In this document: piece by piece, positions 3,782 to 29,942 of the stretch | Layout: each line of letters starts with the position of its first letter | Position numbering within the stretch: the stretch's first letter is position 1 | Assembly: GCF_025370785.1 (NCBI RefSeq) | Contig: NZ_JAMXFA010000051.1 | Location: 1-43,074 of the forward strand | Length of the DNA: 43,074 nt | Direction of reading: 5' to 3' | DNA from: Laspinema olomoucense D3b | GTDB lineage: Bacteria > Cyanobacteriota > Cyanobacteriia > Cyanobacteriales > Laspinemataceae | The notes under the pieces: generated by a model | Told to the model about the DNA's origin: nothing | Seen by the model: only the letters and a program-made list of their open reading frames with translations | Database searches by the model: none | Translations under genes and position numbers: made by a program

Positions 3782-5188
3782 ATGAATAAACAGGATTTAG
3801 CATTTACACCGGCTTTGGAACAAGCGCAGCTGATTCGGAACAAACAACTCTCGCCTTTAGAACTAACCCAGCTTTATTTAGAACGCATCGAAACCTTAGA
3901 TCCCAAGCTGGGCAGCTATTTCACCGTTACCGCTGAATTAGCCTTAGCTGATGCCAAGGCCAAAACGGAACAACTCGCCACAACGGATCCCGATACCCTG
4001 CCCCCCTTCTTTGGCATCCCCATTTCCATCAAAGACCTCACCGCCGTGGCGGATATGCCCTGTAGCTATGGCGTTGCCGCCCTGCGGGACAAATTACCCA
4101 GTCAAGATCGCGCAGTGGTTACCCGCATCAAACAAGGGGGATTTGTCCTCTTGGGGAAAACCGCTACATCCCAATTAGGCAGTCTTCCTTTTACAGAACC
4201 GGCAGGATTTCCACCCACCCGCAATCCGTGGAATTTAGACTATAGCCCAGGGGGGTCCAGTGGAGGAGCCTCTGCCGCCCTGAGTGCTGGATTATGTGCG
4301 ATCGCCCAGGCATCCGATGGCGGGGGTTCCCTCCGGGGTCCCGCTGCCTGCTGTGGGTTAGTCGGAATCAAACCCGCCAGAGGTCGAGTTTCCCTAGCGC
4401 CCCTGGGGGATTGTGTCAGTGGATTACTCACTCATGGGGCGCTCACCCGCACAGTCGCCGATGCCGCCGCCATGCTGGACCTCATTTCCGGTTATGTTCC
4501 CGGAGACCCTTACTGGCTTCCCGACCCTGACCCCTCCTTTCTCGCTCATGCCACCGCGAAAACCGTAAAACCCTTGCGGATAGCCTTTGCCACCCAGCTT
4601 GATCCAATTGGGGAAGCAGCCCCCGAATGTCAGCAGGCGGTCCTAAACACCGTGCAACGCCTGGAAGAAATGGGACACGCGATCGAAGAAATTTCCCTAG
4701 ACTTAACCGATTTACTCCAACCCCTCACCGCCATTTGGGTCAGTGGAGTCTCCTTTTCCGGGATGCCTAGAGAGATTCTGCAGCCGATCAACCAGTGGTT
4801 TTTAGAACGCGGACAACAGGTAACCAGCGGTCAATACCTGCAAGCTGTCGCCCAAATGCAGATGTTTTCCCGGCGGATTGTGGCCTCCTTGGAGCAATAT
4901 GACGCCCTGGTATTACCCGTGTTTATGAGTCCGACCATTCGGGTCGGGGAATGGGCGAATCTCAGTCCTGAAGAAATTTTGCACAAGAGTTTTGAATGGG
5001 TGGCTCCCTGTCCCCTATTTAATGCCACAGGTCAACCGGCGATCGCAATTCCCGCCGGATTTTCCTCCGGTTTACCCGTGGGGGTCCAGCTTGTAGGCCG
5101 TCCCGCCGGAGAAGCCCCCCTCTTTACCTTAGCCGCTCAACTAGAAGCCGCTCACCCTTGGATTCAGTACCGCCCCCCCATCGCCTAG
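3782..5188 (+). CDS. Amidase signature-family amidohydrolase
   Basis: A 468-aa cytoplasmic amidase of the GatA/AtzF fold. The Ser-cisSer-Lys triad is visible with the family spacing: Lys84 (SIKD), Ser159 in the GGSSGG loop, and nucleophile Ser183 in DGGGSLRGPA, followed by GLVGIKPARG. Length matches stand-alone amidases. It could be mistaken for the GatA subunit of Glu-tRNA amidotransferase, but there are no gatB or gatC neighbours and the C-terminal half looks like general amidases acting on small amides. No substrate can be assigned. It appears monocistronic. Confidence 0.88.
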   Translation: MNKQDLAFTPALEQAQLIRNKQLSPLELTQLYLERIETLDPKLGSYFTVTAELALADAKAKTEQLATTDPDTLPPFFGIPISIKDLTAVADMPCSYGVAALRDKLPSQDRAVVTRIKQGGFVLLGKTATSQLGSLPFTEPAGFPPTRNPWNLDYSPGGSSGGASAALSAGLCAIAQASDGGGSLRGPAACCGLVGIKPARGRVSLAPLGDCVSGLLTHGALTRTVADAAAMLDLISGYVPGDPYWLPDPDPSFLAHATAKTVKPLRIAFATQLDPIGEAAPECQQAVLNTVQRLEEMGHAIEEISLDLTDLLQPLTAIWVSGVSFSGMPREILQPINQWFLERGQQVTSGQYLQAVAQMQMFSRRIVASLEQYDALVLPVFMSPTIRVGEWANLSPEEILHKSFEWVAPCPLFNATGQPAIAIPAGFSSGLPVGVQLVGRPAGEAPLFTLAAQLEAAHPWIQYRPPIA

Positions 5189-21196: not shown

Positions 21197-21844
21197 ATGG
21201 ATATTTTTGATCGTTCACAACATCTCTATGTTTCTTCAGACTTTGACGCTATCATCAAAGATACGATCCGCTTTTTTAATGGAACCCCTGTCCATTCTAT
21301 TCCTATTCCCAAACGCTTTTCGGGTACCGGCGTATATGCTCTATACTGTATTGCTCAGTCGGGAATGTACTCAAAATTTCATAAAATTAATAGAACTGCA
21401 TTTAATATGCCGATTTATATTGGTAAAGCGGTTCCCAAAGGGTGGCGGCAAGCTAGGCAGTTATCCTCCATAGACAGTAGAAGTTATGAGTTATATAATC
21501 GACTCTATGAACATAGCTATAGCATCAATATTGCAGAGGGTTTGGAAATATCAGATTTTTTCTGCCGGTTTATGATTCTCGAAGGGAGAGAAAGTGATTT
21601 GATTGGAACGGTTGAAGCGGCCCTCATCCGAAAATATCAACCCATTTGGAACACTTTAATTGACGGATTTGGTAATCATGATCCGGGCAAGGGTAGATAC
21701 CAACAAGCAAAATCAGATTGGGATGTTTGCCATCCAGGACGTCCTTGGGCAGAAAAGTGCCAGGGAATACCTGCAAACCAAGAAAACCTTTTTCAAAGTA
21801 TTGAAAACTTTTTAAATAATTTAGATGATGAAAAACAACCCTAA
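21197..21844 (+). CDS. Eco29kI-like type II restriction endonuclease (GIY-YIG)
   Basis: A 215-aa GIY-YIG nuclease. Residues Tyr47 (GVY), Tyr74 (YIG), Arg102, His106, Glu140 and Asn152 fall in the order and spacing of the catalytic set known for R.Eco29kI, each shifted by two. YIGKAVPKGWRQAR and HDPGKGRYQQAKSDWD are strong family resemblances. R.Eco29kI cuts CCGCGG, and that is the expected but unproven target. The gene overlaps the start of the methyltransferase gene by 20 bases. The DNA is visibly AT-rich and lacks HIP1 sites, suggesting acquisition. Confidence 0.9.
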   Translation: MDIFDRSQHLYVSSDFDAIIKDTIRFFNGTPVHSIPIPKRFSGTGVYALYCIAQSGMYSKFHKINRTAFNMPIYIGKAVPKGWRQARQLSSIDSRSYELYNRLYEHSYSINIAEGLEISDFFCRFMILEGRESDLIGTVEAALIRKYQPIWNTLIDGFGNHDPGKGRYQQAKSDWDVCHPGRPWAEKCQGIPANQENLFQSIENFLNNLDDEKQP

Positions 21845-23006
21845 AATATCTTGCTTAGAATTATTTGCAGGTGCAGGGGGTCTAGCTAAAGGACTAGAAC
21901 TCTCGGGAATTCAACACACCGCTTTGATTGAATGGAATAAAGATGCCTGCAAAACCCTGAGCTATAACTATAGCGAAAATCTGGTTTATAATACCGATAT
22001 TCGTTCCTTCCAGTTTGACCAGTTCGATAAGGTTGATATGGTTTCAGGGGGACCGCCCTGTCAACCCTTTTCAATAGGAGGAAAGCACGAAGGAAATATA
22101 GATGAACGAGATATGTTTCCTTATGTGTGCAAAGCCATCAGTATCTCTAGGCCAAAGTTTTTTATATTTGAAAATGTCAAAGGTCTTTTACGACAATCAT
22201 TTAGGCGCTACTTTGAATATATTATTTTAAGATTAACCTATCCTGATGTTGACATAAAACTTTCAGAAAATTGGCAAGAACATCTCATCCGCCTTGAAAA
22301 TATCCAGACATCAGGCCAATATGACGCCGTAAAATATCAGGTAACTTTTCGCTTGGTGGATGCAGCAAATTACGGCATTCCCCAACGCCGGGAACGGGTT
22401 TTCATTGTAGGTATTAGAGAAGATTTAAACATCAACTGGGTTTTTCCCCAAGAAACCCACTCTCTAGATGCGCTACTCTGGTCACAATTCATTAGTTGTG
22501 ATTATTGGGAACGACATAGAGTCAAACCTTCAGGACTTGAAAATTTGGATAAAAGAACCCAGCAAAGGATTGAGCAACTCATCCAACAACCTACTTTATT
22601 CCCTCCCCCCTTAAAGCCTTGGAAAACAGTTAGAGATGAAATTGGAGAACTGCCAAAACCAGACCCTCAAGGGAGCTTTAATAGTGAACATATTCTTAGA
22701 ACAGGCGCAAAGGCATACCCTGGACACACGGGGAGTTATATTGATATGCCTTCTAAGACATTGAAAGCTGGAGATCATGGTGTTCCTGGAGGAGAAAATA
22801 TGATTCGGTATGAAGATGGTCAAATTCGGTACTACACAACCTTTGAAGCTAAACGAATCCAGACCTTTCCAGATGACTATAAAATTGTGGGGTCATGGAC
22901 AGAAGCCATGAGACAGATTGGCAATGCTGTACCTGTAAAACTAGGGCATTATATCGCAAGTTCCTTGGCTCAGACAATTTGTATGCCAGAGATTTCTCCT
23001 ACCTAG
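21825..23006 (+). CDS. DNA (cytosine-5) methyltransferase, partner of the Eco29kI-like nuclease
   Basis: A 393-aa C5-cytosine methyltransferase that protects the host from the preceding nuclease. Motif I is LFAGAGG, motif IV GGPPCQPFS with catalytic Cys79, motif VI FENVKG, motif VIII QRRERVFIVG and motif X GNAVP. The target-recognition region between VIII and IX is about 100 residues. The start is one of two consecutive ATG codons inside the nuclease gene, so the pair is translationally linked. The last codons and the stop lie in a sequence homologous to the SGNH hydrolase gene, marking a cassette boundary. Confidence 0.95.
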   Translation: MMKNNPKISCLELFAGAGGLAKGLELSGIQHTALIEWNKDACKTLSYNYSENLVYNTDIRSFQFDQFDKVDMVSGGPPCQPFSIGGKHEGNIDERDMFPYVCKAISISRPKFFIFENVKGLLRQSFRRYFEYIILRLTYPDVDIKLSENWQEHLIRLENIQTSGQYDAVKYQVTFRLVDAANYGIPQRRERVFIVGIREDLNINWVFPQETHSLDALLWSQFISCDYWERHRVKPSGLENLDKRTQQRIEQLIQQPTLFPPPLKPWKTVRDEIGELPKPDPQGSFNSEHILRTGAKAYPGHTGSYIDMPSKTLKAGDHGVPGGENMIRYEDGQIRYYTTFEAKRIQTFPDDYKIVGSWTEAMRQIGNAVPVKLGHYIASSLAQTICMPEISPT

Positions 23007-23307: not shown

Positions 23308-23973
23308 TTATCCATTATCAACTGACTGAAACTGTGCCATTAACCAGGCTCCGACTTGGGATTGGTCTTGGTTGCGACTCCGTTGCAGCGCTTGGTCTAG
23401 GGTCGCTATCTCCAGTCCTGGAAACATCATAGAGACATCAATTCGCTGACTCCCCCGATCGCTCATCTGATATGCCAATACCTCCGCTGTTTCCACGTTC
23501 ACAATCCAATATTCAGCAATCCCCACCTCTTCATAAAGGAATCGCTTAACTGTGCGATCGTCCAACAGGGATGATTTCGCTACCTCCACCACCACATCCG
23601 GTACCGGATATTCTTCCAAATTTACAACGTCAGTGCCGTTGGGGATGGCAGTTGCCTGGGTGCCAACGTAATAAGCTAAATCCGGCTGAAACTCGACATA
23701 GCCCGGTTTGCGGAAGGAACAGTTGTCTAATTCTCTAAATGCGATCGCCTTCAAAATGCTGTACAAGTTAACAGCTAGGGAAATCACACTATGGTCTGTG
23801 CTGTGGTCAAAGCCTACGGGTAGTTGCATTTCTAATCTCATTCGCCCATTGCTGTAATAGCCTTTGGATTTAGCATGGGTGGGGTCATCCAAAGCACTCA
23901 GGTACTCCTTCCAGGTGGCAGGAACCCAGGTATCACTGGCTATTAGATTAGAGAGTGGATTCATGCTTATCAT
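23308..23973 (-). CDS. Uma2 (DUF820) family putative PD-(D/E)XK nuclease
   Basis: 221 aa, or 218 aa if the third in-frame codon, ATG at 23964, is the start. Family landmarks: PDLAYYVG, PDVVVEVAKSS, then VKRFLYEEVGIAEYWIVN and VLAYQM. Uma2 proteins have the restriction-endonuclease fold and are hugely expanded in cyanobacteria, often next to mobile DNA; their in vivo function is unknown. This copy has the PDxxxEV core with Lys shifted, as usual for the family. Two further Uma2 genes lie at 29286 and 30033. Confidence 0.88.
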   Translation of the reverse strand: MISMNPLSNLIASDTWVPATWKEYLSALDDPTHAKSKGYYSNGRMRLEMQLPVGFDHSTDHSVISLAVNLYSILKAIAFRELDNCSFRKPGYVEFQPDLAYYVGTQATAIPNGTDVVNLEEYPVPDVVVEVAKSSLLDDRTVKRFLYEEVGIAEYWIVNVETAEVLAYQMSDRGSQRIDVSMMFPGLEIATLDQALQRSRNQDQSQVGAWLMAQFQSVDNG

Positions 23974-24087
23974 CCCGGAGGAAAAATCTACATCTATTCT
24001 ATGTTACTCCTACTCTGTAACTTTGGCAACCGGCAGAGTCTCCATTTCCACATCCAGAACTGTTACAAATTTTCGATATTGATGCAG

Positions 24088-24189
24088 TTAAGTATTAGGA
24101 TCGCCAATTGCCGTTTTAAGTTGGCTTGATAAGCGTTGATCTCCGAGTAAATACCAAAGCCAAATGTGGGTATCTAGCAGCAGTTTCAT
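24088..24189 (-). pseudogene. Truncated PIN-domain toxin
   Basis: Begins MKLLLDTHIWLWYLLGDQRL, the classic N-terminus of VapC-like PIN RNases with the first metal-binding aspartate, and stops after only 33 codons (SSQLKTAIGDPNT then TAA). A full PIN toxin is about 125-130 aa. The ATG overlaps the antitoxin stop as ATGA. The DNA after the stop does not continue the PIN sequence in any frame I can see, so this is a 3' deletion rather than a point mutation. Confidence 0.82.
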
Positions 24190-24416
24190 TCTAACACCTC
24201 CCAGGGCTTAGGCTCTGGCGCAATTATATCTCCTAAAATTTCACCGCTTTCCTTCATAGCCCCAAAAGCGGGGCGGGCATCTGGGATCGTAGCGGGATAG
24301 ATAATCACTAAGGGTTTGCCTTTATGGATGACCGTAATCGGGGTTTTAGTGCGTTCGACTTCTATAAATAAATTCTGGAGAATTTGGGGCAGTTCATTGG
24401 TCGTAATTTCTGTCAT
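24186..24416 (-). CDS. Phd/YefM-type antitoxin
   Basis: A 76-aa protein with the Phd/YefM fold: an N-terminal DNA-binding half (TTNELPQILQNLFIEVERT) with VIHKGKPLVIIYP, and a C-terminal toxin-binding tail (KESGEILGDIIAPEPKPWEVLE). It would neutralise a PIN toxin and repress its own operon. The cognate toxin gene starts in a 4-base overlap but is truncated, so the antitoxin is an orphan here. It may still regulate its promoter or cover a homologous toxin elsewhere. Confidence 0.88.
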   Translation of the reverse strand: MTEITTNELPQILQNLFIEVERTKTPITVIHKGKPLVIIYPATIPDARPAFGAMKESGEILGDIIAPEPKPWEVLE

Positions 24417-24510
24417 TTGTTACCGCCTGAACCGTGAAAAATAATGTAAATGCCGCACAGCTTAATTTTAGCTGACTAGAAATTCCCCGAGTCCGGACCC
24501 ACCGTCTGGA

Positions 24511-24660
24511 CTAACGGGGGTCGCCAATCAACACCAACGGCGACCCGAAAAACGGATGACAGTGAGACTGACTTAATTTCGCCTGACGCAACGCCTCCAC
24601 CTGGGTTAACTCCTCCTGCATGATCAGGGGATTCAACTCTATCCCGGAAAGGTAGTACAA
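24511..24660 (-). pseudogene. C-terminal remnant of a CHAT-domain protein
   Basis: On the minus strand this stretch reads LTQVEALRQAKLSQSHCHP, then FFGSPLVLIGDPR and a stop. That closely resembles the last ~40 residues of cyanobacterial CHAT (caspase-like) proteins: ALRQAQL, a His-Pro-aromatic segment, then FVLIGDPR. The matching region ends upstream of about 24660, where the frame runs antisense into the kinase gene, so the catalytic His/Cys part is missing. Identification rests on pattern memory. Confidence 0.5.
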
Positions 24661-24693
24661 TGACCCTGTACCCCCTTCCCTTGTCTCTGCCCT

Positions 24694-26409
24694 ATGTTTT
24701 GGCCCGACGGACACACCCTGCAAAACGGTAAACTGGTGATTGAGCACGTTCTCGGTCAAGGTGGATTTGGCATTACCTACAAAGCCATCCATCGCGGGTT
24801 TAACGCGCCCGTGGTGATTAAAACCCCGAACGCTCATCTCCGGAAGGACCCAGAATATCCGAAATATGTGAAGCGCTTCATCCGAGAGGCTCAGACTCTG
24901 GCTAAACTGGAACAGAATCCTCACCCCAATATTGTCCGGGTTAAGGATTTATTTGAGGAAGGGGATGCCCATTGTTTGGTGATGGAGTTTATCGATGGAA
25001 CGACCTTATCTGACTATGTGCAGCAACGCGGCCCCCTGTCTGAAGCCGAGGCCCTGAGATATATTCGTCCCATTGCCGATGCGTTGGTTCGAGTGCATGG
25101 GGTAGGTTTGGTGCATCGAGATGTCACCCCTCGTAACATCATGCTGCGGGATAATGGGCAGCCGGTTTTGATTGATTTTGGCATTTCTGGGGAGATTGTC
25201 CCCCAGGCTATGAGTTCCAAAATGTTTGGTAGTCGTGATTTTGCGCCCTATGAACAGTTAATTAAAGGCGATCGCAACCCGACCGTAGATATCTATACCC
25301 TGGCCGCCTCCCTGTACTATCTGATTACCGGACAACTCCCCCAGGATTGTTTGTCCCGCAAAGTGGATGATGAGCCATTGATTGCTCCCAAAGACTTAGT
25401 GTCGGTTAGTCAGCCCATCAATGATGCAATTCTCACAGGAATGGAATTGCTCCCGAAAAATCGCCCTGCTTCAATGGCAGCGTTCTTAGGGTTATTATCC
25501 CCTGCACCTGCCCCAGTCCCTGAAAAAATCTACCACTACGAAATCATCACCCTCAATCAGCAAGGGGAAATAGCCCAACGGCAAAAGGGACAGAATCGCG
25601 GCATTCTGGAAACCACCCTGGGGTTAAACCTAGAAATGGTGGTGATTCCTGCCGGAGCATTCCTGATGGGATCGCCGGAGAATGAAGCGGAGCGAGATAG
25701 TGACGAAAGCCCCCAACATCGGGTGACCTTACCAGAATTTTTGATGAGTCGCACGGCTATCACTCAAGCCCAATGGCGAATCGTTGCCCAACTGCCCCAA
25801 GTGATGCGTTCCCTAGAGCCTGATCCGGCTCACTTTAAAGGCAATAACAATCCTGTAGAACAGGTGAGTTGGGAAGACTGTATCGAATTCTGCCTGCGGT
25901 TAAACCAAGCCACAGGTCAGCCCTACCGCCTTCCCAGTGAAGCGGAATGGGAATATGCCTGTCGGGCTGGAACCACTACTCCTTACCACTTCGGCCCCAC
26001 CCTCTCCCCTCAAGTTGCAAACTATCATGGCAATTACAATTATGGTCAGGGCAAGAAAGGGGAATATCGAGAAAAAACGATTTCCGTGGGCAGTTTAAAT
26101 GCCCCGAACGCTTGGGGATTGCACGATATGCATGGGAATGTGTACGAGTGGTGTTTAGATGATTGGCATGACAGTTATGAAGGTGCGCCAACCGATGGTA
26201 GAGCCTGGATAAAGAATGATAATCATTCTCAAAGCAATATGGACTGGTTAAAAGATTTGTTGAATAAAGAGTCAATAACCAAGCTGCTGCGTGGCGGTTC
26301 CTGGGACTACTACCCGAGGTTCTGCCGTTGTGCCTACCGCAACAACTACCCCCGCGACGTCAAGGACAACTACTTGGGTTTTCGGGTGGTGGCCCCCAGA
26401 ACTGCTTAA
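24694..26409 (+). CDS. Ser/Thr kinase-FGE fusion, DGR variable (target) protein
   Basis: 571 aa, two domains. The kinase domain (residues ~14-270) has GQGGFGITY, Lys43 (VVIK), HRDVTPRN (141-148) and DFG (161-163). The catalytic-loop lysine of HRDxKPxN is replaced by Thr145, so activity needs testing. The formylglycine-generating-enzyme/C-type-lectin-fold domain (~310-571) has VVIPAGAFLMGSP, QVSWEDCIEFC, YRLPSEAEWEYACRAG and GNVYEWC. It ends in RGGSW...GFRVVAP, the usual frame of DGR variable regions. Its last ~40 codons are the VR at 26282-26399. Ten residues differ from the template-encoded ones: Asp538, Tyr539, Tyr540, Phe543, Tyr548, Tyr552, Pro553, Val556, Asp558 and Tyr560. No transmembrane segment is present, so it should be cytosolic. 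Confidence 0.95.
   Translation: MFWPDGHTLQNGKLVIEHVLGQGGFGITYKAIHRGFNAPVVIKTPNAHLRKDPEYPKYVKRFIREAQTLAKLEQNPHPNIVRVKDLFEEGDAHCLVMEFIDGTTLSDYVQQRGPLSEAEALRYIRPIADALVRVHGVGLVHRDVTPRNIMLRDNGQPVLIDFGISGEIVPQAMSSKMFGSRDFAPYEQLIKGDRNPTVDIYTLAASLYYLITGQLPQDCLSRKVDDEPLIAPKDLVSVSQPINDAILTGMELLPKNRPASMAAFLGLLSPAPAPVPEKIYHYEIITLNQQGEIAQRQKGQNRGILETTLGLNLEMVVIPAGAFLMGSPENEAERDSDESPQHRVTLPEFLMSRTAITQAQWRIVAQLPQVMRSLEPDPAHFKGNNNPVEQVSWEDCIEFCLRLNQATGQPYRLPSEAEWEYACRAGTTTPYHFGPTLSPQVANYHGNYNYGQGKKGEYREKTISVGSLNAPNAWGLHDMHGNVYEWCLDDWHDSYEGAPTDGRAWIKNDNHSQSNMDWLKDLLNKESITKLLRGGSWDYYPRFCRCAYRNNYPRDVKDNYLGFRVVAPRTA
26282..26399 (+). repeat. DGR variable repeat (VR)
   Basis: 118 bases matching the template at 27973-28090. 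All 12 differences lie at template adenines: 26305, 26308, 26311, 26320, 26321, 26335, 26347, 26350, 26359, 26360, 26365 and 26371. No other base differs. The last ~27 bases, from CTTGGG to CCCCCAG, contain no change and are the likely initiation-of-homing segment. Beyond it VR and TR diverge at non-adenine bases (AGAACTGCTTAACC versus AGCACTCTTCAACC), as IMH and IMH* do in known DGRs. Confidence 0.97.
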
Positions 26410-26441
26410 CCCTCTACTCTTTTTCCCTCTTTCCCTCTTTT

Positions 26442-26461
26442 GGCGCGGAGCGCCTTTTTTT
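26442..26461 (+). terminator. Hairpin and T run after the DGR target gene
   Basis: GGCGC-GGA-GCGCC followed by seven T. It is an intrinsic terminator for the target gene and, by position (about 40 bases beyond the VR), could also be the hairpin or cruciform that promotes homing in other DGRs. Confidence 0.8.
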
Positions 26462-26531
26462 ATTTTTTTAGATGACCCTGCCCCTGACTATGGTTTGATA
26501 AAGAAAGGTTACCTATTTTTGACAAACTGGA

Positions 26532-26885
26532 ATGGACGAACTGCCGATTATTCAGAAAACCTACGATCTAATACAATGGTATATTCCCATTTTGAACCGA
26601 TTACCGCGAGATCATAAAATGATGCTCGGAGAGCGGATTGTTACCCATCTCTATGAATTCCTAGAAAATCTCATTATAGCACGATATTCATCTCAAAAAA
26701 GCAACCTATTGCGTGCCCTGAACCCGAAACTTTCTATCCTCCGCTACCAGACCCGCCTCCTCATGGATTTTCAACTGATTTCCGTTGAGCGCTATGAATA
26801 TATCGCCAAACAGTTGGATACCATCGGCAAAGAACTGGGAGGCTGGATTCAGCAACAATCGGGCAAACCCACAAAAACAACCTAA
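26532..26885 (+). CDS. avd: DGR accessory variability determinant (Avd), four-helix-bundle protein
   Basis: A 117-aa, almost entirely helical, basic protein: IIQKTYDLIQWYIPILNRLPRDHKMMLGERIVTHLYEFLE and following helices match the Avd-type four-helix bundle. Avd forms a pentamer that binds the reverse transcriptase and template RNA and is needed for cDNA synthesis in studied DGRs. The gene lies 12 bases before the reverse transcriptase gene and downstream of the target. The Shine-Dalgarno is weak (CTGGA). Confidence 0.88.
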   Translation: MDELPIIQKTYDLIQWYIPILNRLPRDHKMMLGERIVTHLYEFLENLIIARYSSQKSNLLRALNPKLSILRYQTRLLMDFQLISVERYEYIAKQLDTIGKELGGWIQQQSGKPTKTT

Positions 26886-26897
26886 CTTTAACCTAGC

Positions 26898-27953
26898 ATG
26901 AAACGTTTCGGAAATCTCTGGCCTCAAATATCGAGCTTTGCAAACCTCCTCATAGCAGCCCGCAAAGCCCAAAAAGGGAAGCGGTTTCGGCCCACGGTTT
27001 TAGAATTCAACGATAACTTAGAAAGCAATCTGATTCAACTGCAAACTGAGCTCAACAGCCAAACCTATCAACCGGGAAATTACCATCAATTCTATGTCTA
27101 TGAACCCAAAAAAAGGCTAATTTCAGCGGCCCCCTATCGAGACCGAGTGGTCCACCATGCGCTCTGCAACATTATTGCGCCTTTATTAGAACGCTCCTTT
27201 ATTGATACTTCTTATGCGAATCGCATCGGCTACGGTAGCCACTGCGCCCTAGAAAAATTCACCACCCTCGCCCGCACTCACCGCTACATTCTCCAGTGCG
27301 ATATTCGGAAATTTTTCCCCACGATTAATCATAGCCTTCTCAAGGCAATCATTCGCCGCAAAATTAAATGTAAAAATACCCTGTGGTTGCTGGATACTAT
27401 CATTGATAATGGCAAAAATCTCGATCCGGTTCTTCACTACTTTCCCGGGGATGATCTGCTGGCACCAGTTTTATATCCTTGTGGTTTACCCGTAGGCAAT
27501 TTGACCAGCCAATTTTTAGCAAATCTCTACCTCAATGGCTTTGATCACTTTATTCTGCAAGCGCTAAAAATTCCCGCTTACGTTCGCTATGTTGATGATT
27601 TTGCTTTGTTTGCCAATGATCATACTCTCCTAGCCCAAGCTCGCCCAGAAATTGAAACCTATCTGGCCACCCTACGGCTAAAAATTCACCCCATCAAAAG
27701 TCAACTGTTTGAAACTCGCCACGGTGCTAATTTTTTAGGGTTCCGCATTCTCCCCCAACAAATTCGCGTTCGTTCGGACAGTCTCCAGCGACTCCGAGGT
27801 AAACTGAAAACCCGTTACCATGAATATCAGCATCAGCAGATTGATCAGAGTCAGTTCCAGCAATCCATCCAAAGCTGGCAAGCTCATCTCGACCACGGCA
27901 ACACCGCCCACTTGCAGCATCAACTTTTTGATCCAATGCTGGTAGAATTTTAA
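26898..27953 (+). CDS. DGR reverse transcriptase
   Basis: A 351-aa stand-alone reverse transcriptase that copies the TR RNA with errors opposite adenines. Motif A is [12 protein letters not shown] with Asp135. The DGR-specific motif 4 reads [11 protein letters not shown] (residues 196-206), with SQ where retroviral and group II enzymes have SP. Motif C is YVDD (231-234). Motif D/E and the thumb follow ([16 protein letters not shown]). There is no maturase, RNase H or endonuclease domain. Length is normal for DGR enzymes. The TR begins 20 bases after the stop, so the template RNA probably lies in the same transcript. Confidence 0.97.
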
Positions 27954-27972
27954 TCAAGGGATGAACGATTTT

Positions 27973-28090
27973 AGCTGCTGCGTGGCGGTTCCTGGAACAA
28001 CAACCCGAGGAACTGCCGTTGTGCCAACCGCAACAACAACACCCGCGACAACAAGAACAACAACTTGGGTTTTCGGGTGGTGGCCCCCAG
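27973..28090 (+). repeat. DGR template repeat (TR), non-coding
   Basis: The 118-base template for the VR at 26282-26399. In the VR frame it contains twelve AAC codons; changing the two A bases of AAC gives many amino acids but no stop codon. There are 29 adenines in the variable stretch. The RNA must include sequence downstream for priming, which would fall in 28091-28269. Apparent open frames across this region are not genes. Confidence 0.96.
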
Positions 28091-28269
28091 CACTCTTCAA
28101 CCGGCCAGAATAGCTCAATGGGAATTGGGTTAGCGTGCGATCGAGGAGTTCAGTTTCATTCCGGTGATGCCCCGGCATCCAAATATCTCGTCACCCAAAG
28201 GTGGGGGAGTAGGGACATCCGAAACCCGACTAATGGGATAATGAGGGCAAATTCTATCATACAAATCCT
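28091..28269 (+). other. Region downstream of TR, probable spacer RNA for cDNA priming
   Basis: 179 bases without a gene between TR and the second kinase. In characterised DGRs a structured RNA segment 3' of the TR is bound by RT-Avd and provides the priming site. Its presence here is inferred from position only. It may also hold the kinase promoter. Confidence 0.4.
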
Positions 28270-29229
28270 ATGCCTTGGGAAAAAGGAAAAACACTGAAGG
28301 ACGGAGCCTACACCATTGAGAGTGTTTTAGGACAAGGGCGATTTGCCATTACCTATCTAGCCAGCGATCGCATGGGGGAACGGGTGGCGATTAAAACCCT
28401 CAATCCTGATTCCTCAGTCTTAGGGCAAATGAGCGCGCCGGATCGTCAAGCCTTCGGCAGTAAATTTTATGATGAAGCGCTCAAACTGGAAAAATGTAAA
28501 CATCCTAATATTGTGCCAGTGCGGGAGGTGTTTGAAGAGTCGATGCGCGCTTGGTTGACCCAAGTCCGCTATGCTTGTATTGTTATGGACTATATCGATG
28601 GCTTTGATCTAGAGCATCGGCGATCGCCCCGTCTGCCGAGCGCTGAGGTATTGCACTATGGACGACAAATTGGCTCCGCTTTGATTGCCGTCCATGCACA
28701 AAAGATACTCCATCGGGATGTGAAACCGGGAAATATTATCGTGCGATCGCAGGGGGGCAAAAGTGAGGCAATTTTGATTGATTTTGGTTTAGCGCGTGCC
28801 TTTGCTCATCCCCTCACTCAACACATTACCACCAGTGGGTTTGCTCCCATCGAGCTATACTCAAATAAATTTGAGCGCGGCCCTTGGACTGATGTCTATG
28901 GTTTAGCCGCCACCCTCTACGAATTACTCACCGGAAAACCCCCAGAGGATGCCCTAGCCCGCCATGATAAAGATTTAAAAGTAGACTTAACTCCCCCGCG
29001 ATGTTATGTTCCCCAGATTAGCAAACGAGTGAATCAGGCGATCGTCCAAGGTTTAGCCGTGATGCCGGGCGATCGAACCCCATCAATTCCTAAGTTTTTA
29101 CGACAATTGGGAGTTGGACAGTGGTATGTCCCCTTTCCCGATTGGGATGTCAATATTTGGGTACAGGTAGGCACTATGATAGGAACTCTTCTCGCGGCAA
29201 CTGCGGCGATCATAGCGTTGTTCAAATAG
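28270..29229 (+). CDS. Ser/Thr protein kinase with C-terminal membrane anchor
   Basis: 319 aa. The kinase domain spans residues ~14-280 with LGQGRFAITY, Lys (VAIK), HRDVKPGN, DFGLA and the APIEL activation segment; all catalytic residues are conserved, unlike in the DGR target kinase. A transmembrane helix lies near the C-terminus (VGTMIGTLLAATAAIIAL) with almost nothing beyond it, so the kinase faces the cytoplasm as a tail-anchored protein. It starts 180 bases after the TR on the same strand. The two kinases share the start MxWxxGxTLxxG, suggesting a paralogous origin. Confidence 0.92.
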   Translation: MPWEKGKTLKDGAYTIESVLGQGRFAITYLASDRMGERVAIKTLNPDSSVLGQMSAPDRQAFGSKFYDEALKLEKCKHPNIVPVREVFEESMRAWLTQVRYACIVMDYIDGFDLEHRRSPRLPSAEVLHYGRQIGSALIAVHAQKILHRDVKPGNIIVRSQGGKSEAILIDFGLARAFAHPLTQHITTSGFAPIELYSNKFERGPWTDVYGLAATLYELLTGKPPEDALARHDKDLKVDLTPPRCYVPQISKRVNQAIVQGLAVMPGDRTPSIPKFLRQLGVGQWYVPFPDWDVNIWVQVGTMIGTLLAATAAIIALFK

Positions 29230-29285: not shown

Positions 29286-29942
29286 ATGGTTCAAACTCCT
29301 ATCTCCTCTCATATTCTCTACCCGGACTCTGATGGTAAGCCGATCGCGGAAAATACCCTGCAATATCGCTGGATTGTGCGGTTAGTCACTAATCTCAAGC
29401 AACTCCTCAAGGAACAAGTTGCCTTTGTTGCGGGGGATTTACTCTGGTATCCGGTTCGGGTGGAACGTCCTCCCGCCCCCTGTCAAGCGCCAGATGCGAT
29501 GGTAGTGTGGGGTCGTCCGGATGGGGACCGAGGTAGTTATAAACAGTGGGAAGAAGATAACATTGCCCCCCAGGTGGTGTTTGAAATTCTCTCTCCCAGT
29601 AATACCATGATCGAAATGGCGGCAAAACAAAATTTTTATGCACAGTATGGTGTGCTGGAAATGGTTTTTTATGACCCCCAATCTCATAATTTTTGGGGGT
29701 TGCATCGGGCTACGGCGCAAGATAGCTTAAACTTTATCCAATCCCAGGATTTACCTTGGATTTCTCCTTTGTTGAATATTCGTTTTGAACTGTCGGCTGA
29801 TGGTTTAGCGGTGTATCATCCTGATGGGGAATTGTTCAAGGAACCGGGGGAGTTGTATGAGGAACGGGATAAGGCACAACAGGAAAGGGATAAAGCCTTT
29901 GCTAAACTTCGGGAACTGGGGATTGACCCTGAAACCCTTTAA
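29286..29942 (+). CDS. Uma2 (DUF820) family putative nuclease with coiled-coil tail
   Basis: 218 aa. Family landmarks are PDAMVVWGRP, PQVVFEILSPSNT and the AKQNFYAQYGVLEMVFYDP region. The C-terminus has a short charged coiled-coil repeat (EERDKAQQERDKAFAKLRELG) seen in many cyanobacterial members. It follows the second kinase on the same strand, 56 bases downstream. Function unknown; fold assigned by family. Confidence 0.88.
   Translation: MVQTPISSHILYPDSDGKPIAENTLQYRWIVRLVTNLKQLLKEQVAFVAGDLLWYPVRVERPPAPCQAPDAMVVWGRPDGDRGSYKQWEEDNIAPQVVFEILSPSNTMIEMAAKQNFYAQYGVLEMVFYDPQSHNFWGLHRATAQDSLNFIQSQDLPWISPLLNIRFELSADGLAVYHPDGELFKEPGELYEERDKAQQERDKAFAKLRELGIDPETL

What the first reader, a model, noticed from the sequence alone, without database searches (positions are those of the whole stretch)
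24694..28090. Complete diversity-generating retroelement whose target is a protein kinase-FGE fusion
Target gene with VR, avd, DGR-type reverse transcriptase and TR lie in order on one strand within 3.4 kb. The target joins a Ser/Thr kinase to an FGE (C-type-lectin fold) domain whose C-terminal ligand face is diversified. Known phage DGRs diversify receptor-binding tips; here the variable surface would tune what an intracellular kinase senses or binds. DGRs on signalling proteins have been reported in cyanobacteria, so the class is not wholly new, but this exact locus appears intact and worth characterising.
Basis: partly seen in the sequence, partly recalled or inferred. Interest (0 to 1): 0.95.

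Follow-up and report, generated by a model that had tools for sequence, protein, structure and literature searches.

The report
Self-mutating kinase sensor, cyanobacterial DGR
A filamentous cyanobacterium carries a complete genetic device that rewrites the sensing end of a protein kinase, a kind already known in cyanobacteria; the useful extra is that a close relative has lost the device yet kept the sensor gene intact.

Summary
Kinase-FGE target, avd, DGR-type RT and TR lie in order at 24694-28090; VR (26282-26399) and TR (27973-28090) differ at 12 of 118 sites, all at TR adenines. [quoted passage not shown] So: a new member of a known kind. The added value is comparative. In Oscillatoria acuminata PCC 6304 (same genus; named by plasmid match) the orthologous target is open, but two deletions removed most of avd, RT and TR. 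A second kinase-FGE DGR, with RT, TR and VR in two congeners, survives in the window's own genome as a target without cassette. Between species, VR differences sit at TR-adenine sites (18/31 against 4/87). Loci with RT show 0/267 non-adenine VR/TR differences; cassette-less ones show 3-7 per locus, though part of that may be the use of foreign TRs. Kinase and FGE parts stay under purifying selection. 'Diversify, then keep' fits but is not proven; present activity and ligand are untested.

The parts
24694..26409 (+). DGR target gene: protein kinase-FGE fusion, 571 aa
24739..25347 (+). Pkinase domain (aa 16-218)
   Evidence: Pfam PF00069, E 5e-39; HRD, Asn and DFG present, catalytic-loop Lys is Thr
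25633..26391 (+). FGE-sulfatase (C-type-lectin-fold) domain (aa 314-566)
   Evidence: Pfam PF03781, E 7e-50; fold like PvdO 5hha and T. denticola variable protein 2y3c
26282..26399 (+). VR, ends 10 bp before the end of the stop codon
   Evidence: 12 mismatches to TR, all at TR adenines
26442..26454 (+). GC-rich hairpin GGCGC-GGA-GCGCC, 42 bp past VR; possible target-recognition hairpin or terminator, uncertain
   Evidence: terminator-like sites in the region are not above chance (4 found, 5.2 expected)
26532..26885 (+). avd
   Evidence: NCBIfam NF033474 above cut-off, Pfam bAvd
26898..27953 (+). DGR-type reverse transcriptase, open, QCDI / VGNLTSQ / YVDD by inspection
   Evidence: RVT_1 E 5e-20; RT tree
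27973..28090 (+). TR, non-coding, 20 bp past the RT stop
28270..29229 (+). neighbouring kinase gene (319 aa) without FGE or VR; part of the block absent from G003 and G008; role in the system unknown

Best explanation
A complete DGR of the cyanobacterial kind. By analogy with the studied Bordetella phage DGR, TR RNA is copied by RT with Avd with errors at adenines and the cDNA replaces VR, redrawing the ligand face of the FGE domain of a kinase (mechanism inferred; anatomy and adenine signature shown). The cassette worked after, or very near, the split from O. acuminata. In the genus the mutator is dispensable: three open kinase-FGE targets at two loci now lack their cassette (O. acuminata loci 1 and 2, window genome locus 2), and their kinase and FGE parts are under purifying selection. 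The reading I favour is that the receptor stays useful in a fixed form after the mutator is lost.
For: VR/TR: 12 A and 0 other differences. Between-species VR: 18/31 A sites against 4/87 others, p 1e-9. Intact loci, own VR against own TR: other sites 0/87, 0/90, 0/90. Chance of 0/87 if last homing predated the split, at the 9.2% divergence of the aligned gene: 2e-4 (about 0.02 by hand if 4/87 is used instead). O. acuminata: target open, 89% identical; avd and RT remnants only. Locus 2. dN/dS of kinase and FGE parts 0.11-0.38 in eight pairs.
Against: One genome only, so present activity is not shown. The pooled 0/267 against 19/360 (p 2e-5) compares own TR with TRs picked as nearest, mostly foreign; against a cross-species control (3/180) p is 0.06, and intact VRs against the O. 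acuminata remnant TR give 3/90 and 5/91. dN/dS spans time before the loss, and kinase values with O. acuminata locus 2 (0.32-0.38) are no lower than in the pair with both cassettes (0.34). The two locus-2 losses may share a first deletion. Thr for Lys in the kinase; long RT branch, 0.48.
Confidence: 0.75

Rival explanations
1. The DGR is a recently silenced relic in this strain: parts intact by sequence, but no longer working.
For: RT has a long branch (0.48, median 0.16) and 7 of 127 near-invariant positions changed; relatives lose cassettes.
Against: RT and avd open; 0/87 non-adenine VR/TR differences. Two of the RT changes (Phe139, Asn144) also stand in the O. acuminata remnant, so are old, and VRs went on diverging at adenines.
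Confidence: 0.2
2. Cassette loss is neutral erosion; the target is kept only because deletions happened to spare it or because the kinase does something unrelated to the variable face.
For: G007 locus 1 lost even more (avd remnant joined to 28471, contig end), and G003 and G008 lack the whole block 24032-29225, so targets are not always kept.
Against: Three cassette-less targets are open with dN/dS well under 1 outside VR.
Confidence: 0.4
3. The kinase-FGE is an anti-phage or other conflict sensor with a diversified antigen-binding face.
For: Proposed for DGR targets of multicellular bacteria (PMC10907252, passages); best PADLOC matches are PD-T4-6 kinase models; an Eco29kI-like restriction pair lies nearby.
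Against: PADLOC matches are read as general kinase similarity; no STAND NTPase, TIR or protease partner was recognised among the ten proteins scanned.
Confidence: 0.3
4. The module is phage or plasmid cargo.
For: RTs 60-63% identical on four cyanobacterial plasmids (capped at 5000 records); block absent from G003 and G008.
Against: Housekeeping-like neighbours by inspection; 164 of 164 phage records under 60% identity, best of the 8 listed 42%; same position in O. acuminata and, as remnant, G007.
Confidence: 0.04

Closest known systems
Cyanobacterial DGRs of Vallota-Eastman et al. 2020 (PMC7517822; abstract, section 4 parts 1-2 of 3 and passages seen)
   Same: Ser/Thr kinase grafted to a C-terminal C-type-lectin-fold domain with VR near the 3' end; paralogues without RT; the authors suggest removal of the diversification parts once a good variant is selected.
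   Different: Here the suggestion is seen at orthologous positions in sister species. The words Oscillatoria and avd were not found in the main text.
Nostoc punctiforme DGR (PMC12691664, passages)
   Same: Filamentous cyanobacterium; RT, Avd, TR and two targets expressed.
   Different: There adenine mutation was seen by resequencing; here activity is inferred from comparison.
Bordetella phage BPP-1 DGR (PMC3240598, passages)
   Same: VR, avd, RT, TR, adenine-specific change.
   Different: TR follows RT here; target is a kinase, not a phage tail tip; hairpin past VR is shorter and farther (5 bp stem, 3-base loop, 42 bp) than the 7-10 bp stems, GRNA loops and 4-34 bp given there.
Treponema denticola variable protein 1 (2y3c)
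   Same: FGE-like fold of a DGR target.
   Different: 22% identity in the fold alignment; no kinase (recalled).
Thiohalocapsa PB-PSB1 DGRs (PMC10907252, passages)
   Same: C-type-lectin-fold (also FGE) targets as putative sensors; a Pkinase domain is in the figure key.
   Different: Conflict-system partners described there were not recognised here.

Membership tests
Diversity-generating retroelement | VR and TR that differ at TR adenines | tested here: met
   12 of 12 differences at A
Diversity-generating retroelement | DGR-type RT next to TR | tested here: met
   RVT_1; falls with cyanobacterial DGR RTs, set of 3 at 100/98; TR/VR pairs in 68 of the 80 relatives
Diversity-generating retroelement | Avd | tested here: met
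   NF033474 above cut-off
Diversity-generating retroelement | GC-rich hairpin just past VR | tested here: inconclusive
   5 bp stem 42 bp past VR; 12 of 86 VR rows have stems of 7 bp or more against 0.7 expected from shuffles, the window not among them
Diversity-generating retroelement | Mutagenic retrohoming observed | not testable with these tools
   needs culture sequencing
Active Hanks-type Ser/Thr kinase | HRDxKxxN and DFG motifs | tested here: inconclusive
   HRD, Asn and DFG present, Lys is Thr
Formylglycine-generating enzyme (as enzyme) | C-terminal part of the solved enzymes | tested here: inconclusive
   Sequence matches to entries named formylglycine-generating enzyme end at query residues 192-196 of 271, before VR, while PvdO and 2y3c reach 266; active-site cysteines not mapped

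The most novel reading that the evidence does not exclude
DGRs in filamentous cyanobacteria act as temporary affinity-maturation devices: a kinase receptor is diversified, a useful variant is selected, and the mutator is then deleted while the matured receptor is kept, so one genus carries still-maturing and finished receptors at orthologous loci.
Probability: 0.3. Interest if true: 0.7.

Novelty: new member of a known kind. Interest (0 to 1): 0.42.

Why it matters
The locus adds one more kinase-targeting DGR to a published class. Its value lies in the setting: two loci, each with the mutator present in some congeners and deleted in others, and open targets left in three cassette-less cases. 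That makes a suggestion in print (removal of the diversification parts after selection) testable by ordinary binding and kinase assays on matched 'still variable' and 'fixed' receptors, one of them in a named culture strain, O. acuminata PCC 6304.

Tried and rejected
Remote VRs of the window TR: nothing convincing beyond the local VR and a diverged paralogue. Rfam: no match at gathering scores. tRNA: none. Promoter/terminator scan: not above chance (3 against 4.9; 4 against 5.2). PADLOC kinase and RT matches taken as general similarity. Phage origin: unlikely. The survey totals of adenine against other mismatches (934 against 56 in 68 loci) are not used as evidence, since the search scored and filtered for adenine mismatches. 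The RNA fold after TR was not used. A note of mine that L148 holds a TR-like stretch at 4761-4886 was wrong; that stretch is flank. Paper searches bearing on DGR loss with a kept target (listings; passages) showed no report of orthologous loss in cyanobacteria; a review passage notes a crAss-like phage target conserved in genomes that lack DGRs (PMC8867640). Most of the listing was off topic, and subscription papers are not held, so absence from print is weakly supported.

Full report
Observation. Target, avd, RT and TR lie in that order on the + strand at 24694-28090. VR and TR are 118 bp each, 1691 bp apart, with 12 differences, all at the 31 adenines of TR and none at the 87 other bases; the chance of that placement is 1.7e-8. 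Ten codons are altered. TR has 16 adenine-bearing codons of 38 in frame, 12 of them AAC; one (AAG) could become a stop; about 8e16 protein variants are possible. Profiles name Pkinase, FGE-sulfatase, Avd and RVT_1. The next best RT in the genome is 34% identical.

The target. An AlphaFold2 model from 41 aligned targets gives a confident FGE part (block pLDDT means 87 or more from residue 281 to 570, except 66 and 81 at 511-530) and a poor kinase part. Foldseek puts PvdO (5hha) first and Treponema denticola variable protein 1 (2y3c) next; by sequence PvdO is also first and 2y3c is sixth. No coordinates were to hand, so exposure of the variable residues was not computed. No search for signal peptides or membrane helices was run. 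The kinase has HRD, Asn and DFG, with Thr in place of the catalytic-loop Lys.

How typical it is. A scan with the RT kept 80 loci, the best of 124 relatives. A script found TR/VR pairs in 68 of 80; in 63 of the 68 TR lies within 400 bp 3' of RT (L077, with a cut RT match, counted in by hand), 65 have a VR within 1.8 kb upstream of RT, and an avd match sits just upstream of RT in 66 of 80. The layout is ordinary. Of 41 targets scanned (the window and 40 of the 60 listed) all have FGE and 3 have Pkinase. [quoted passage not shown]

Locus 1 in congeners. 14 genomes of the family were searched; 5 have this RT at E <= 1e-60. G002 is Oscillatoria acuminata PCC 6304: 8000 of 8000 bases of its 50,699-bp contig match NC_019694.1 at 100%. 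There the window aligns from 24471 to 26746, from 27184 to 27341, and from 28093 on, at 89-91%. The 3' part of avd, most of RT and the whole TR are gone in two deletions, while a 572-aa target is open. In G007 about 137 bp of avd remain, next to 28471, near a contig end, so its target cannot be judged. In G003 and G008 nothing aligns between 24031 and 29226 or 29233, with 47 and 54 bp between; whether by loss or never present is open.

Locus 2. G003 and G007 carry a kinase-FGE DGR elsewhere, with open RT, TR and VR (avd not tested apart, though the window aligns across it). Target and right flank are 90-92% identical to contig C81 of the window's own genome, where the 584-aa target is open and the cassette is missing; part of that interval reads N. 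O. acuminata keeps this target too, 764 aa with an inserted stretch, plus a C-terminal RT remnant and a TR. So three open targets at two loci lack their cassette; the two locus-2 losses may share a first deletion. The RT tree puts locus 1 with L014 and G010 of the same family (100/98) and locus 2 with six rows named Nostoc, Richelia, Calothrix and Rhizonema (98/87), so the two have separate histories; the bootstrap had not settled.

Counts by site class. Locus 1, window against O. acuminata VR: 18/31 A sites and 4/87 others differ (p 1e-9). Locus 2 VRs pairwise (10 pairs): A 13-20 of 23-25, others 1-9 of 89-90. Own VR against own TR at loci with RT: A 12/31, 17/22, 11/25; others 0/87, 0/90, 0/90. 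Cassette-less VRs against the nearest TR: others 4/87, 3/91, 6/91, and 6/91 for a G007 paralogue (6/90 against its own genome's TR). O. acuminata locus 2 against its own remnant TR: A 13/24, others 7/91. Pooled, 0/267 against 19/360, p 2e-5; but against a cross-species control of 3/180 p is 0.06, and the intact VRs against the O. acuminata remnant TR give 3/90 and 5/91. So erosion after loss is suggested, not proven. dN/dS of kinase and FGE parts is 0.11-0.38 in eight pairs, 0.34 and 0.21 in the pair where both have the cassette; VR values are 0.93-7.5 on few synonymous changes.

Reading. The DGR is real and its VR was rewritten after, or very near, the split from O. acuminata. The copying mechanism is inferred from the Bordetella system. 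What the kinase senses is unknown; the 2020 authors propose autoinhibition relieved by ligand, or choice of substrate. Loss of the cassette with the receptor kept fits 'diversify, then keep', which they raise for a paralogue; the orthologous cases here are a cleaner instance, but neutral erosion is a serious rival.

Verdict. New member of a known kind, interest 0.42; the receptor-freezing reading would deserve 0.7 if true.

Noticed in passing
window 21197-23006: Eco29kI-type restriction endonuclease next to a C-5 cytosine methylase: an apparent type II restriction-modification pair close to the DGR.
   Followed up: no
L147 5431-7725: The O. acuminata locus-2 target carries an extra stretch between kinase and FGE that reads like a CAP/SCP domain (by eye, not scanned): a domain gained by a cassette-less target.
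   Followed up: no
L019, L022, L025, L028, L053, L061, L065, L072: Rows named Thiotrichaceae, Acidobacteria or Chloroflexaceae fall within the 59-row set of cyanobacterial RTs (100/98), unlike the 2020 statement that this subgroup is not shared; transfer or binning error.
   Followed up: no
window 26898-27953: The RT has a long branch (0.48) and 7 changed near-invariant residues, among them Phe139, Asn144 and Tyr193; whether this shifts its error pattern is open.
   Followed up: partly
80 bp past VR in related loci: 12 of 86 VR rows have hairpin stems of 7 bp or more within 80 bp, against 0.7 expected from mononucleotide shuffles.
   Followed up: partly
window 23308-23973 and 29286-29942: Two Uma2-family genes flank the module; O. 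acuminata has a further partial copy at L146 13182-13493.
   Followed up: no
L003 860-1380: Tandem-like repeats around GTAGGGGCGTATTGCATACGCCC, part read as N, lie where the locus-2 cassette is missing on contig C81; possibly linked to the loss.
   Followed up: no
L055, L056, L059, L064 and others: Many relatives have a second VR gene just past TR; in the window that place holds a kinase without FGE.
   Followed up: no
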